Below, piece by piece: positions 7,194-37,902 of a stretch of 38,761 nucleotides of DNA. The stretch covers positions 1 through 38,761 of the forward strand of contig JAIRYF010000010.1 in assembly GCA_031267895.1 (NCBI GenBank), in the 5' to 3' direction. The notes beneath the pieces were generated by a model, which ran no database searches, had not been told where the DNA came from, and saw nothing but the letters and a program-made list of their open reading frames with translations. The DNA is from Candidatus Methanoplasma glyptotermitis (GTDB lineage: Archaea > Thermoplasmatota > Thermoplasmata > Methanomassiliicoccales > Methanomethylophilaceae). A program made the translations under genes and the position numbers. Positions within the stretch are counted from its first letter, which is position 1; each line of letters starts with the position of its first letter.

Positions 7194-7486
7194 CTGCGTT
7201 CGGCCTCCATTCTTAACGCATCATGTCTGCACATCTTTGCGCATATACCGCACCCTTTGCAGAAATCGTAATCGACGGAGACTTTATTTCCGCACCTGGC
7301 GATCGTTCCGTCGGGACAGTACAGATAACACTGCAGACACCCCGTGCATTTTTTGGTGTCGATCACAGGCCGGATATCTCTCCATCCGGAGTTTTTGGTA
7401 ACCAAAAAGCCCGCTTCGTATGCGGTGTTGTCCGGAAGGCTGTCAGACCTCCATTCCGGTATGCAAGTTCTCAGATGCGGTTTCAT
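7190..7486 (-). CDS. 2-oxoacid:ferredoxin oxidoreductase, delta (2[4Fe-4S] ferredoxin) subunit
   Basis: 98 aa. Two complete CxxCxxCxxxC clusters, Cys47/50/53/57 and Cys76/79/82/86, with the Pro after the first cluster, as in PorD/VorD. It passes electrons from the TPP centre to external ferredoxin. Its ATG overlaps the TGA of the gamma gene (ATGA). That matters: the coupling would be useless if translation of gamma ended at its internal TAG 260 bp earlier. Confidence 0.9.
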   Translation of the reverse strand: MKPHLRTCIPEWRSDSLPDNTAYEAGFLVTKNSGWRDIRPVIDTKKCTGCLQCYLYCPDGTIARCGNKVSVDYDFCKGCGICAKMCRHDALRMEAERR

Positions 7487-8019
7487 GATCTCCCTCCTGC
7501 AGCACGGAATGCCTCTTCTGCAACCCTGACATTCCCTTCATGGAGATGTTCCGGAAGAGTGTCTTTTATTCCTTTGCAAACCGATTCTATCGGCAATCTG
7601 CCCCATACCGCTGCAAGTACTCCGACCATTGCCGTATTGAATATGGGAGTCCCCGATATTCCCGAAGAGATATGAGATGCGTCGAATGAGATTATATTCT
7701 GATTGTCATATGTCTCGGCGGTATTGATTATGACGGTACCGGCACCCTATGAGGTCCCGCGGAACAGAGTGCTGTCAAGATAGACTGTGAAATCGGCGCA
7801 TGTTATCTCGTTCCTGCTGTTGACTTCGGACTCCGATAGTTTCGTAAATGCCCTCACCGGCGCACCGCGGCGCTCCGGGCCGAACGACGGGAATGCGAGC
7901 GCATACCTGTCACCGCCCCCCGCAATATACGACGCAGCCAACAGCCTGGCGGCGGTGAATGCACCTTGCCCGCCTCTTCCGTGCCATACCACTTCGGTAA
8001 GCCCGTCCGCCTGATTCAT
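7483..8019 (-). CDS. 2-oxoacid:ferredoxin oxidoreductase, gamma subunit, with in-frame TAG (probable pyrrolysine codon)
   Basis: Read through one TAG, this is a 178-residue PorC/VorC gamma subunit, the normal family length. Before the TAG: VVWHGRGGQGAFTAARLLA (about 10-28), ALAFPSFGPERRGAP (about 39-54) and ADFTVYLDSTLF (about 75-86). After codon 91 (TAG at 7749-7747) the same frame continues with GAGTVIINT, then ISGTPIFNTAMVGVLAAVWG and an EEAFRAAG C-terminus, all expected for the family, and ends in TGA overlapping the delta ATG. The break falls in a loop just before the conserved GGTVIINT-like strand, a variable position. There is no frameshift and no loss of conserved residues, so it is not a decayed gene. 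A strong GGAGG site precedes ATG 8019. Either TAG is decoded as Pyl, or it is a sequencing error or a recent nonsense change. If TAG stopped translation the product would be a 90-residue fragment. Confidence 0.82.
7747..7749 (-). other. In-frame TAG (amber) sense codon candidate in the gamma subunit
   Basis: Codon 91 of 179 in a frame that is otherwise open and family-like from 8019 to 7483. The distance from the TAG to the TGA is 267 bases, an exact multiple of three. Confidence 0.75.
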
Positions 8020-8046
8020 TTACATGTCCTCCCGTCCGCGCATCTC

Positions 8047-8088
8047 TTATTGTGAATAAAATGTTATTGTGACTTATGCATATATGCA
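8047..8088 (-). promoter_or_regulatory. Oxidoreductase operon promoter: palindromic TATA element and direct repeats
   Basis: The perfect palindrome TGCATATATGCA (8077-8088) supplies a TATA box whose TSS would fall near 8057. Two copies of TTATTGTGA (8047-8055 and 8064-8072; TCACAATAA on the coding strand), 17 bp apart, lie across the TSS and leader, where a repressor would bind. The SD GGAGG follows at about 8029-8033. The rest of the 8020-8403 gap is AT-rich and holds promoters only. Confidence 0.4.
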
Positions 8089-8403
8089 ATCCGGGAACTA
8101 TAAATCGATATCAGGATTTCTGTATCTTTTCACGTTCGAGAAGCGGGATACCGGAATAAACCGTGTTCTATGCGTGCCGGCATATGTTTAGACCGGACAA
8201 CTGGAGCGAACCGAGACAATATTTCCGTGCGTTTTACAAATCGTCCGGATGTCTTTCCGCGGGATCGAGAACTTCGAGCAGTATTATTATATGACTATTA
8301 TTCTCAACTATCTTCATATATTGCTTATTAACTACCATTTCACATCTGAAAAACGGGTAATTCTGAAAATCAGAGGTACCGAATACGGATAAGGAGAATA
8401 GAA

Positions 8404-9729
8404 ATGTCAAAAACGATAGTGGCAATAGTTGTCGTGGCTATTCTGGTCATTGCGGGGGCAGGGGCGGCATTCGTCCTCGCCAGCAATGGAAAGGACAACA
8501 CGTCATCAGCGAATCCCGCTGAGATCAATTTCATAACAGGTCTGGAAGCAGTGGGGTCTGGGGTGTTCTACGACAAAAATAAGGTAACGGCATCTGACCT
8601 CTTTGCCGACGATATCCTCACCGCCGACGGACTCAGCGTCAGGGAGGATGTGACGGTGAAGTACAAAGCGGCAGGATGGAACAAACTTATAATAGGAACG
8701 CCCACGGCGACGGCAATACAGCAGATCCAAATAAAGACGATCGTTGAACAATATCTCAACGATGCCAGCAAAGTCGTGGACACCCCCAGAGAGTACAAAT
8801 ATGTGTCCTGGCAGGAAGGGCAGAAACTCGAAGACGGCGAAGTCTACTTCGTCCTTTACGGCACCGGAACGTCGGATGCAATACTCGCTCACACCTATGA
8901 TAATGTAGATCTCGGCATAACATGGCAGCCCAATTTCTCCAAAGTGGTGGCTGATTCGAGATATACTTCGCTGGTAAGGACCAACGAGCTGTTCCCGCAC
9001 CAGACATGCTGTGTAACGATAGCCAATGCAAAATTCGTCCAGGAGAACCCGGAAGTAGCGGAGCGTGTTGTGTGGGCTATTGTCCAGGGCACGAACTGGC
9101 TGAATGCGGCGAAGGCAGCAGGCGAATCCAATCCGAACGATGTGAACTACCAGGCACTGCTGAATATCGGAAGAGTTGTCGGGGGCGATACATTCACCAA
9201 AGAAGATCTGATCGTTCCGTTCAATGATGTGGAGTATGCATGGTCCGACAATGATGCCAATCCCAATGCAGAGAGGAACAGTCCCCTCGATACGCTGAAG
9301 TCAGACGTAGTCCAGCAGGTGGAAGACCTCTACAACGGAAGAGCAATATCGAATAACTACAGCGACCTTGGATTCAGCAGCTGGGCAGATTATGCCGACA
9401 GTTTAGTCGATGACACTGTACTCAGAAACATCATAAACAACGGAGTGGACAATGTTCCCGCATGGACCGACGAGGCTACCGTCAAATTCAAGCTGATCAG
9501 CGGTGACATACACCAGCTTCCCGTACACATAGCGGCAACGCTGCTCCCGGGACAGACACAGACATTCTTTGAGCAGGCCGGAATAGACTTCCAGGAGGCA
9601 GGAATCCGTGCGACCGGAAGCGGTCAGGTTGTAACAACGCTCCATGCCGGCGAAGCAGACTTCGCGGTTTCGGGTCAGCCGGGTGTGCTTATAGACAATA
9701 TAAACAATAAGTTCACTGTGAAGGATTAA
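8404..9729 (+). CDS. ABC transporter substrate-binding protein (SsuA/TauA/NMT1-like)
   Basis: 441 aa. An N-terminal hydrophobic anchor (IVAIVVVAILVIAGAGAAFVLA) has no lipobox Cys, so it is probably membrane-anchored outside the cell. The body shows periplasmic-binding-protein traits of the nitrate/sulfonate/taurine class: GWNKLIIGTPTATAIQQIQI near 95-115 and FPHQTCCVTIANAKFVQENP near 197. The C-terminal ~85 residues (from about DIHQLPVHIAATLLPG) look like the beginning of a second SsuA-like lobe, with GEADFAVSGQPGVLI, so the protein seems extended or permuted relative to a single-copy binding protein. ATG 8404 follows AAGGAG. The permease and ATPase genes come next, after a terminator, and the ligand is unknown. 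Confidence 0.78.
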   Translation: MSKTIVAIVVVAILVIAGAGAAFVLASNGKDNTSSANPAEINFITGLEAVGSGVFYDKNKVTASDLFADDILTADGLSVREDVTVKYKAAGWNKLIIGTPTATAIQQIQIKTIVEQYLNDASKVVDTPREYKYVSWQEGQKLEDGEVYFVLYGTGTSDAILAHTYDNVDLGITWQPNFSKVVADSRYTSLVRTNELFPHQTCCVTIANAKFVQENPEVAERVVWAIVQGTNWLNAAKAAGESNPNDVNYQALLNIGRVVGGDTFTKEDLIVPFNDVEYAWSDNDANPNAERNSPLDTLKSDVVQQVEDLYNGRAISNNYSDLGFSSWADYADSLVDDTVLRNIINNGVDNVPAWTDEATVKFKLISGDIHQLPVHIAATLLPGQTQTFFEQAGIDFQEAGIRATGSGQVVTTLHAGEADFAVSGQPGVLIDNINNKFTVKD

Positions 9730-9739
9730 ACATTTTTCA

Positions 9740-9763
9740 GGGGCATACAGCCCCGTCTTTTTA
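9740..9763 (+). terminator. Hairpin plus T-rich terminator after the binding-protein gene
   Basis: Stem GGGGC / GCCCC with loop ATACA, then GTCTTTTTATTT, 10 bp after the TAA. It probably attenuates so that the binding protein is made in excess over permease and ATPase, a common arrangement. Confidence 0.65.
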
Positions 9764-9953
9764 TTTGTGGCTTAAGTTCCGGGCCATGCGGGCGGCACCT
9801 GCGGTATTATTATAGGGATATTTCTGTCAAACCAATTCATATACTAAAATATGTTCTTCTTTCCTATATGATTTACGAGGGACCTGATAAAGAATACATG
9901 CGCCGCGATGGCCCCTGCGTGTGGCGCGGCAGATCCGAGGGGGGCGATGCACG

Positions 9954-10880
9954 ATGGCACTGTCTCTGAGGGGATCCGAAAATAAAGAAACAGGAGGAGA
10001 AGAGGGAAACAGCACGGAACGGAGGAGATCCGCTTTCTCCCTCGGAAACGGTGACGATGAACAGTTCACGTTCGCAAGCATCGGATATGATCCGGAGAAC
10101 AGATACCACAGGGCGGTCAGACTGACGCTGTTTACGATAGCATCTCTCTCTTTGCTGCTGATAGTTTGGCAGTTTTGGTCTATGTAGTGCAATGTTGCAT
10201 TCGTTCCCACGCCCGCCGATACGTATCATGCACTGATAGATCTGTTCAGGAACGGCGATGCGTGGACGCACAGAAGCATGTGGACATACATAAAATCAAG
10301 TTTTTCCACGTTTGCAAGAGGGTTTATAATGGCACTTGTCACTGCATTCCCTCTGGGTCTCCTGCTGGGATTCGTCAGGTTTTTCAGAGACCTGGCCAGT
10401 CCCGCGATCGAGGTACTCAGGCCCATAGCGCCTGTGGCATGGGCACCTGTGCTTGTGATACTGTACGGATCTGTGTTGGGGTCCATGCTTGTGGTGTTCG
10501 TGGGTGCGTTCTTCCCCATACTGACCAATGTGATATTCGGTGTGAGAAAAATCGATCCGAATTGGGTGGATGCCACCAAAGTATTGGGGGCCAGCAAGCT
10601 GCAGACCTTCGTGAAAGTGGTGATTCCATCGTCAATTCCGTATCTGATGAACGGTGTGAAGATCAGTATGGGGATAGGATGGATGTGCATCGTATCGGCA
10701 GAATTATATTCGTCTGCCGTCGGCGGACTCGGGTCTTTCATAACCAGCCATGCAAGCGTCGGAAACTGGCCCAACGTCTATGCGGGCATAGTATTAGTTG
10801 GAATATTGGGGATAATAACCGTCGGAGTGGCAGGATACCTGCACAAAATAATCTCTAAAAAAATGGGGATGGACGCATGA
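9954..10880 (+). CDS. ABC transporter permease (SsuC/TauC-like) with in-frame TAG (probable pyrrolysine codon)
   Basis: 308 residues when read through one TAG. Residues 1-77: a charged cytoplasmic start, then a first membrane helix (LTLFTIASLSLLLIVWQFW). Codon 78 is TAG (10185-10187). The same frame continues CNVAFVPTPADTYHALIDLF, the loop that normally follows helix 1 in this family (the 'P.P......L.....G..W.H' pattern), then five or so helices. The EAA-type cytoplasmic loop is WVDATKVLGASKLQTFVKVV (about 201-220). The codon sits in a variable external loop, so a bulky residue would be tolerated. Starting instead at the internal ATG 10278 would remove helix 1 and leave a 200-aa stump. ATG 9954 follows a G-rich SD (GAGGGG). 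The end overlaps the ATPase gene by ATGA. TATA-like sequence lies near 9838-9852. Confidence 0.82.
10185..10187 (+). other. In-frame TAG (amber) sense codon candidate in the permease
   Basis: It lies exactly in frame with ATG 9954 (codon 78) and with the downstream permease frame ending at 10880. Family-like sequence lies on both sides. Confidence 0.75.
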
Positions 10881-11692
10881 CAGAAGGCTGCACTGAATAC
10901 TCGTACAACAAGACAGGATGCGCAGGTGCGGATCCGCAGATAAAGATAGACAGGCTTGAGAAGACATACCGCAGGGACGGTAAGAAAACAGAAGCCATAG
11001 AGGATATCTCTCTGGATATAAGACAGGGGGAGCTGGTGACCTTCATCGGACCCTCCGGCTGCGGAAAGACCACCCTGCTTAAGTTGATAGCGGGTCTGAT
11101 CACTCCGAACGGAGGAACTGTTGAGATCAACGGAAGGCCCTGCACTCAGCCCGGCGCGGACAGAGGAATGGTCTTTCAGGATTTCGCGCTGCTTCCATGG
11201 AGGTCTGTAAGGAAAAATGTTGAACTGGGTCTTGAAATAGCAGGTGTACCAAGAGCGGAACGCAGAGAAAAAGCGGAAAGCTACATCAGGCTGGTGGGTC
11301 TCGAAAGGTTCGCAGATTCCAAGACATATGAACTATCCGGGGGAATGAAACAAAGAGTGGCCATAGCAAGGGCATTGGTCGTGAGGCCGGACGTTGTGCT
11401 GATGGACGAACCCTTTGGGGCACTGGACGCACAGACCCGCAATATCATGCAGGCTCAGCTCACAGACATACTCGGGAGCACAGACCAGACGATAATATTC
11501 ATAACCCACTCGGTGGACGAGGCCATATACATTTCGGACAGGATCGTTGTACTGACCAAGCGTCCGACCGCGATCCGGGAGGTAATAAATATACCATGGG
11601 CGCGGCCGAGAGACCGCTCTTCCTCCGAGTTCAATGCCCTGAAAAAGAGGATACTGGATTATCTGGAGAGAGAGAACGTCATGGACAGCTGA
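10877..11692 (+). CDS. ABC transporter ATP-binding protein (SsuB/TauB-like)
   Basis: 271 aa. Walker A GPSGCGKTT (near 56), Q-loop VFQDFALLPWRS, signature LSGGMKQRVAIARAL, Walker B VVLMDEPFGALD and the H-loop ITHSVDEA are all intact. The ALLPW Q-loop and IPWARPR tail are typical of the nitrate/sulfonate/taurine importer class. It energises the importer formed with the two preceding genes. The start overlaps the permease stop (ATGA). The gene ends one base from the convergent Rrf2 regulator. Confidence 0.9.
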   Translation: MTEGCTEYSYNKTGCAGADPQIKIDRLEKTYRRDGKKTEAIEDISLDIRQGELVTFIGPSGCGKTTLLKLIAGLITPNGGTVEINGRPCTQPGADRGMVFQDFALLPWRSVRKNVELGLEIAGVPRAERREKAESYIRLVGLERFADSKTYELSGGMKQRVAIARALVVRPDVVLMDEPFGALDAQTRNIMQAQLTDILGSTDQTIIFITHSVDEAIYISDRIVVLTKRPTAIREVINIPWARPRDRSSSEFNALKKRILDYLERENVMDS

Positions 11693-37110: not shown

Positions 37111-37902
37111 CTACAAACGTGTTTGGTAACCAGTTGATTTCTTTGGATAATACAGCCCAATTATTATCCATGTTTTGAATATGTAATGGGTTCCCATTAT
37201 GAAGTGCAGATCATTTTTTGTGGTGAATGTATCAAAAAATCTGTCACGTATCTTCCCAAGGGTCTCTCCCTCGTCTTTGTAAATGTCTCTCCATTTTCTG
37301 AAGGCTTCGTAAAGCTCCCAGTCTTCACATATTATTTTGTGATTTTTTTCTTCTCCATCGCATTTGAACACATACGAGAAATGTCGGTCATACTTTCGGT
37401 TTATGGCTGGTATCTTTTTGATTTCGCCTTCTTCATCGAAGATCATTTGAAATGCTTTGTTATACTCCTTTCCCACTTTGGCTTCTTCATTATCCTTTGA
37501 TTTCTCGTATTTGAAATCCAATATTTCCGATGGTCTAATAAGGCCTAAACTTGCTCCAGATTCTGATAACTCTTGCAGATTTTTTACACGCTTTGGTAAA
37601 AGAATGGTGCTTCGCTCTGACCATTCAGCGCCGTCTGCATCAATATGGCCGACCTTTTTTATTGTGTCCGGGTTTATTTTATAGATTTCAGGTCGCTTGT
37701 CGTCTTCAGCCTTTTCACAATCAACCTCTATCCAGTCATATTTGCTTATTTTTGTATTCTTATCACAAAATATCCGAAATGGTACTGGATATATTCTGAT
37801 GAATTCTCCGTCATCGGTTATTCCTGCTGCGCATACTGATGCCTGATATTTTTTACTCGTCAGCGGCTCTGCTTTAGCCAAGACTAGAACTTTTTTCTTC
37901 AT
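37111..37902 (-). CDS. Unrecognised protein paired with AbrB-DUF488; ends TAG then TAA
   Basis: 263 aa, cytoplasmic, Lys/Asp/Glu-rich. N-terminal beta-rich part (KKVLVLAKAEPLTSKKYQAS, FIRIYPVPFRIF), WSERSTILLPKRVKNLQEL near 94-112, SLGLIRPSEILDF near 118, then a helical part (WELYEAFRKWRDIYKDEGE) and a C-terminal HFIMGTHYIFKTWIIIGLYY. I cannot name the family. It follows the DUF488 gene with an ATGA overlap, so the two form one unit. The DNA is notably AT-rich compared with the rest of the window, a sign of transfer. The stop is TAG (37111-37113), the only gene end of this kind here; if TAG is read as Pyl the protein gains Pyl-Leu-Glu before TAA. Confidence 0.7.
   Translation of the reverse strand: MKKKVLVLAKAEPLTSKKYQASVCAAGITDDGEFIRIYPVPFRIFCDKNTKISKYDWIEVDCEKAEDDKRPEIYKINPDTIKKVGHIDADGAEWSERSTILLPKRVKNLQELSESGASLGLIRPSEILDFKYEKSKDNEEAKVGKEYNKAFQMIFDEEGEIKKIPAINRKYDRHFSYVFKCDGEEKNHKIICEDWELYEAFRKWRDIYKDEGETLGKIRDRFFDTFTTKNDLHFIMGTHYIFKTWIIIGLYYPKKSTGYQTRL

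What the first reader, a model, noticed from the sequence alone, without database searches (positions are those of the whole stretch)
9954..10880. Second in-frame TAG, in an ABC permease, independent of the first
TAG at codon 78 separates membrane helix 1 from the rest of an otherwise intact SsuC-like permease, in frame on both sides. Two separate, non-decayed genes 2.4 kb apart, each broken only by TAG and never by TAA or TGA, are hard to explain by random mutation. A Pyl residue in an external loop of a transporter would be unusual.
Basis: partly seen in the sequence, partly recalled or inferred. Interest (0 to 1): 0.85.

Follow-up and report, generated by a model that had tools for sequence, protein, structure and literature searches.

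The report
Transporter gene read through TAG (pyrrolysine)
A gut methanogen's transporter gene is interrupted by the codon TAG, and because this archaeon makes the 22nd amino acid pyrrolysine and has TAG, but no confirmed TAA or TGA, inside many intact genes, the cell most likely reads the codon as pyrrolysine and makes the whole protein; this habit is already known in its order, but here it also reaches a single-copy essential gene.

Summary
TAG at 10185-10187 is codon 78 of an otherwise intact NrtB/CmpB-like ABC permease (9954-10880 +), and a second lone TAG interrupts the gamma subunit of a 2-oxoacid:ferredoxin oxidoreductase 2.4 kb away (7747-7749, minus strand). The genome is a Candidatus Methanoplasma-like Methanomassiliicoccales with pylT, pylS, pylB, pylC and pylD. 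In nearly all relatives with a homologue the permease is one unbroken protein, so the 200-aa form from ATG 10278 is not the normal product. In 589 alignments of conserved genes, the only stop codons deep inside homologous sequence were TAG (4 TAG, 0 TAA, 0 TGA). TAG ends about 2% of called genes, and half of those continue as coding sequence. Other TAG-interrupted genes include single-copy aspartyl-tRNA synthetase, PurH, TrpF and D-aminoacyl-tRNA deacylase. Best explanation: UAG is read as pyrrolysine across the genome. In the permease it is probably recent and near-neutral: relatives carry I, L, V, A, M or T there, at the last turn of helix 1 rather than in a loop. This is a known kind of event (16 such proteins in M. 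alvus, 46 amber-containing genes in ISO4-H5). The modestly new point is an essential single-copy synthetase that depends on it. Incorporation itself is inferred, not shown.

The parts
9954..10880 (+). ABC transporter permease, 308 aa when TAG is read through; NrtB/CmpB/TauC-like (PF00528)
10185..10187 (+). in-frame TAG, codon 78; relatives carry I, L, V, A, M or T here
10101..10190 (+). predicted membrane helix 1 (residues 50-79), with the TAG residue in its last turn
   Evidence: AlphaFold model, mean pLDDT 77
10278..10880 (+). the 200-aa frame from ATG 10278, the supposed alternative product; it lacks helix 1 and the segment after it, and no Shine-Dalgarno-like sequence precedes it
7483..8019 (-). 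2-oxoacid:ferredoxin oxidoreductase gamma subunit (PorC/KorC, TIGR02175), TAG-interrupted
8404..9729 (+). substrate-binding protein of the same transporter, SsuA/NMT1-like with lobes in permuted order
10877..11692 (+). ABC ATPase of the same transporter

Best explanation
The permease is one 308-residue protein, and its UAG codon 78 is decoded as pyrrolysine by tRNA-Pyl(CUA), charged by PylS. Pyl is made in this organism constantly enough that UAG acts as a sense codon through much of the genome. TAG stops have largely disappeared, so a point change to TAG inside a gene is tolerated instead of lethal. At codon 78 the change is lineage-specific and probably near-neutral: pyrrolysine replaces a variable hydrophobic residue in the last turn of helix 1. 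Shown by sequence: the TAG, the homology across it, the pyl genes, and the one-sided count of interruptions. Inferred: actual Pyl incorporation, its efficiency, and its lack of functional effect.
For: Single TAG in an otherwise intact, conserved frame. pylS over its curated cut-off, pylB/pylC/pylD and TAG-bearing methylamine methyltransferases beside it, pylT with CUA anticodon just upstream of pylS, single copy, PYLIS_3 over its cut-off in mttB. Stop usage 732 TGA, 231 TAA, 19 TAG in 982 called genes from about three quarters of the genome; 10 of the 19 TAG-ended genes continue as coding sequence (score over 8), against 14 of 228 TAA and 39 of 729 TGA. Non-methyltransferase genes with homology across a TAG: AspRS, PurH, TrpF, D-aminoacyl-tRNA deacylase, gamma subunit, glycosyltransferase, permease. 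AspRS is single copy and 83-88% identical to unbroken AspRS of most congeners, so termination there should be lethal. No other CUA tRNA was found among 36 tRNAs in the sampled stretches.
Against: No peptide or transcript evidence. aRF1 keeps its NIKS and YRCD motifs, so termination at UAG remains possible. About 9 genes in the sample may still end at TAG. No PYLIS-like element at the permease TAG; such elements are reported as not obligatory (PMC4153887). An intact paralogue of the permease lies elsewhere in the genome (C56, 51% identical), so loss of this copy might be survivable.
Confidence: 0.86

Rival explanations
1. The permease is a young pseudogene: a nonsense mutation truncated it and the intact paralogue on C56 covers its function.
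For: A paralogue with intact permease exists, and one relative carries a copy with three different stops (G014:C69).
Against: No frameshift, deletion or second stop anywhere in the operon; SBP and ATPase intact; the interruption is TAG as in AspRS, PurH, TrpF and the gamma subunit; no deep TAA or TGA interruptions found. Even as a relaxed gene its TAG would be read in a genome that reads TAG in AspRS.
Confidence: 0.08
2. UAG terminates most of the time, and a shorter permease from ATG 10278, or a split protein, is the working form; readthrough is a minor or regulated product responding to Pyl supply.
For: An in-frame ATG exists at 10278; aRF1 motifs are canonical; regulated Pyl expression is reported in other organisms (PMC4153887).
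Against: Homologues have helix 1 and the following segment; the ATG downstream of the TAG has no clear ribosome-binding sequence. A mostly-terminating UAG would not suit a single-copy AspRS.
Confidence: 0.05
3. Sequencing or assembly errors created the TAG codons.
For: The genome is a 72-contig assembly and no reads were available.
Against: Errors would not choose TAG; seven independent well-supported genes plus the expected methyltransferases carry TAG and none was confirmed to carry a deep TAA or TGA.
Confidence: 0.01

Closest known systems
Putative Pyl-containing proteins of 'Ca. Methanomethylophilus alvus' (Borrel et al. 2014, PMC4153887)
   Same: Same order; complete pyl set; 1.6% TAG stops; [quoted passage not shown] one is a transporter family protein.
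   Different: Different genes; here AspRS, PurH, TrpF, D-aminoacyl-tRNA deacylase and an ABC permease are affected.
Methanogenic archaeon ISO4-H5 (PMC5011839)
   Same: 46 genes with in-frame amber codons, including central metabolism genes.
   Different: Rumen organism; gene set differs.
tRNA-His guanylyltransferase (Thg1) with Pyl by neutral evolution (Heinemann et al. 2009, seen here only as a reference in PMC4153887 and PMC8211752)
   Same: As its title says, Pyl appearing in a non-methyltransferase protein by neutral evolution.
   Different: One protein there; many genes here. Experimental details not read.
Archaeal 'Pyl code' (Kivenson et al., Science 2025; from memory, not found in the library)
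   Same: Archaea in which TAG is read as Pyl throughout.
   Different: Whether this species was included could not be checked.

Membership tests
UAG-as-pyrrolysine decoding (Pyl-decoding Methanomassiliicoccales) | complete pylS, pylB, pylC, pylD and tRNA-Pyl(CUA) | tested here: met
   pylB, pylC and pylD named from their translations and order, not run through a family library
UAG-as-pyrrolysine decoding (Pyl-decoding Methanomassiliicoccales) | methylamine methyltransferases with in-frame TAG | tested here: met
UAG-as-pyrrolysine decoding (Pyl-decoding Methanomassiliicoccales) | low use of TAG as terminal stop | tested here: met
   19 of 982 genes end at TAG in the sample, at most about 9 genuinely
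UAG-as-pyrrolysine decoding (Pyl-decoding Methanomassiliicoccales) | conserved genes interrupted by TAG but not by TAA or TGA | tested here: met
   4 against 0 against 0 deep interruptions in 589 alignments; domain-spanning TAG genes, no domain-spanning case among the TAA/TGA candidates with Pfam matches
UAG-as-pyrrolysine decoding (Pyl-decoding Methanomassiliicoccales) | pyrrolysine found in the protein by mass spectrometry | not testable with these tools
   no proteome
UAG-as-pyrrolysine decoding (Pyl-decoding Methanomassiliicoccales) | PYLIS-like element after the permease TAG (reported as not obligatory) | tested here: not met
   no Rfam match at 7300-10900 beyond a chance SNORD48 hit
Fully reassigned TAG code (no TAG stops left) | no gene uses TAG as terminal stop | tested here: inconclusive
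   about 9 TAG-ended genes without clear coding continuation remain, e.g. window 37111-37902 with a TAA two codons later
Type I ABC importer permease of the NrtB/SsuC/TauC group | BPD_transp_1 domain and the NrtB/CmpB fold | tested here: met
   PF00528 67 bits over cut-off 26.4; CmpB TM 0.84, NrtB TM up to 0.83 on target length
SsuC (aliphatic sulfonate permease) proper | NCBIfam equivalog cut-off | tested here: not met
   NF008470 69.9 bits against 347; NrtB and TauC cut-offs also missed

The most novel reading that the evidence does not exclude
UAG is effectively a sense codon for pyrrolysine throughout this genome, and the amino acid has become unconditionally essential because the only aspartyl-tRNA synthetase needs it: pyrrolysine supply then controls charging of another tRNA, whatever methylamines are available.
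Probability: 0.5. Interest if true: 0.6.

Novelty: new member of a known kind. Interest (0 to 1): 0.42.

Why it matters
Automatic annotation cuts such genes in two or calls them pseudogenes, so the proteome of these gut methanogens is misread. A TAG in a single-copy aminoacyl-tRNA synthetase would tie basic protein synthesis to pyrrolysine, a clear case of a code change becoming hard to reverse, and it is directly testable by removing pyl genes in a culturable relative or by proteomics.

Tried and rejected
A first homology count was swamped by antisense shadow ORFs and N-terminal over-extension of query genes; filtered by frame score and inspected alignment by alignment. The TAA and TGA candidates from the symmetric scan with Pfam matches are neighbouring genes in one frame, e.g. 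CbiN-CbiQ, PyrI-kinase, NADHdh-Oxidored_q6; two TGA candidates had no Pfam match and stay undecided, and the rest were not scanned. The TAG in PurH of G008 is at another position near the N-terminus, so no TAG position was seen shared. ARAGORN misses this tRNA-Pyl, and so did my pattern search; it was found by reading the sequence upstream of pylS. A literature search for 'Pyl code' found nothing in the library.

Full report
Observation. Reading window 9954-10880 + gives a 308-residue ABC permease with one stop, TAG at 10185-10187, codon 78. Pfam places BPD_transp_1 at residues 132-302, which alone would not prove continuity across the TAG, so homologues were used. In 61 genomes from the genus, family and order (own included), 60 have a match, and the best match of each relative runs uninterrupted from about residue 40 to the end, except fragments at contig ends and one with a TAA near its N-terminus. 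In the 20 homologues aligned, the alignment crosses the TAG without a gap; they carry I, L, V, A, M or T (one each) at that column. W72 upstream and P87 downstream are invariant. An AlphaFold model (mean pLDDT 77) puts helix 1 at residues 50-79, so residue 78 is in its last turn rather than in a loop. The ATG at 10278 suggested as an alternative start would remove helix 1, and no Shine-Dalgarno-like sequence precedes it.

The other TAG. On the minus strand, 8019-7483 encodes the gamma subunit of a 2-oxoacid:ferredoxin oxidoreductase (TIGR02175, 145 bits, over its cut-off of 81) with TAG at codon 91 (7749-7747), 2436 bases away. The POR domain spans it and the closest homologues, in G008, G014, G003 and G002, are unbroken. 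In G008 and G003 the permease and this subunit also lie on one contig, 1.8 to 5 kb apart.

The genome. It is 1.717 Mb in 72 contigs. The nearest named record of the permease is from a Candidatus Methanoplasma MAG. PylS scores 284.7 bits against a cut-off of 178. The same contig holds frames that read as pylB, pylC and pylD, a RamA-like activator, two methyltransferase genes with TAG at codon 202 and a corrinoid protein (names by position and sequence, not each run through a family library), and MttB with TAG. A single-copy tRNA with loop CTCTAAA, anticodon CUA, lies at C35:7979-8048, just upstream of pylS. Among 36 other tRNAs in the sampled stretches none reads UAG.

Stop usage. I took stretches covering 1.26 Mb plus the window. 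A codon-usage gene caller gave 982 genes: 732 TGA, 231 TAA, 19 TAG. Of the 19, ten continue after the TAG with coding-like sequence (score over 8), against 14 of 228 TAA and 39 of 729 TGA. Reading each stop in turn as sense, 15 genes had strong coding on both sides of TAG, 11 of TAA and 6 of TGA. Pfam separates these: for TAG, single domains span the codon in PurH, TrpF, D-aminoacyl-tRNA deacylase, a family 2 glycosyltransferase, the gamma subunit, MttB and the dimethylamine methyltransferase, and AspRS has its OB-fold before and its catalytic domain after. Of the TAA/TGA candidates scanned, the seven with Pfam matches have no domain across the stop and mostly show two different neighbouring proteins; two had no match, and the others were not scanned.

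Homology count. Genes called in stretches of G007 and G003 were aligned to the sampled genome. After removing shadow frames, 589 alignments (583 kb) remained. The TAA and TGA inside them lay in the N-terminal part of an over-extended query (inspected) or within a few residues of an alignment end. Stops deep in homologous sequence were TAG in AspRS, TrpF, the gamma subunit and the permease: 4, 0, 0. If the three stops were equally likely, four of four TAG has probability about 0.012; the seven well-supported non-methyltransferase cases, all TAG, about 0.0005. These are rough, since the stop types need not arise equally and the second figure pools several searches.

Essentiality. AspRS is single copy in this genome, with TAG at codon 108, and is 81-88% identical to the unbroken AspRS of most congeners. 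PurH and the deacylase are also single copy. Efficient decoding of UAG is the only reading I find compatible with this. Across genes the residues at the TAG columns of relatives are diverse (E or V in AspRS, P in PurH, K in TrpF, D, S, A or P in the gamma subunit), and no TAG position was seen shared with a relative, which favours recent, near-neutral origin over a role for pyrrolysine chemistry.

Mechanism. Shown: sequence, continuity, machinery, one-sided counts. Inferred: that tRNA-Pyl decodes this UAG and with what efficiency. aRF1 keeps its stop-recognition motifs, so decoding presumably wins by competition. No PYLIS element is present at either window TAG.

Known context. Borrel et al. 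2014 (PMC4153887) reported 1.6% TAG stops and 16 putative non-methyltransferase Pyl proteins in 'Ca. M. alvus', and proposed that in-frame ambers persist there and could make Pyl essential. ISO4-H5 has 46 amber-containing genes (PMC5011839). I recall a 2025 Science paper defining an archaeal Pyl code but could not find it in the library. The finding is therefore a new member of a known kind.

The transporter. The permease resembles CmpB and NrtB most closely in structure (TM up to 0.85 and 0.83 on target length) and in sequence. It misses the NCBIfam cut-offs for SsuC, NrtB and TauC, so 'SsuC-like' is fair only as a superfamily label and the substrate is unknown.

Noticed in passing
window 8404-9729; L068:231-1409; L154:2836-3966; L153:1763-3889: The substrate-binding protein has its lobes in circularly permuted order: C-lobe first, N-lobe last. 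The order recurs in the aligned relatives, with another cut point in L154/L155 and a 709-aa form with two copies' worth of sequence in L153. Rejoining L154 gives one continuous NMT1_2 match (27-242, 91 bits) instead of half; the window protein still gives two separate matches. A glucose-binding lipoprotein with divergent topology (PMC4990184) turned up as possible precedent (abstract only).
   Followed up: partly
L027:2535-4355 (G000:C14): Single-copy aspartyl-tRNA synthetase with TAG at codon 108, between OB-fold and catalytic domain.
   Followed up: yes
L054:2033-3673; L077:3072-3689; L083:6376-7224; L076:18648-19634: Further TAG-interrupted genes: PurH, TrpF, D-aminoacyl-tRNA deacylase, family 2 glycosyltransferase.
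   Followed up: yes
L141 (G008:C74): PurH of the relative G008 has a TAG at a different, N-terminal position, so it may be read there too, or the true start is further in.
   Followed up: partly
window 37111-37902 -: The only one of the listed window genes that ends in TAG has a TAA two codons later, like a back-up stop.
   Followed up: no
L090:13547-14095; L053:15977-18007: A weak transposase-like frame and a leucine-rich-repeat protein also carry a single TAG; homology across the TAG is weaker there.
   Followed up: partly
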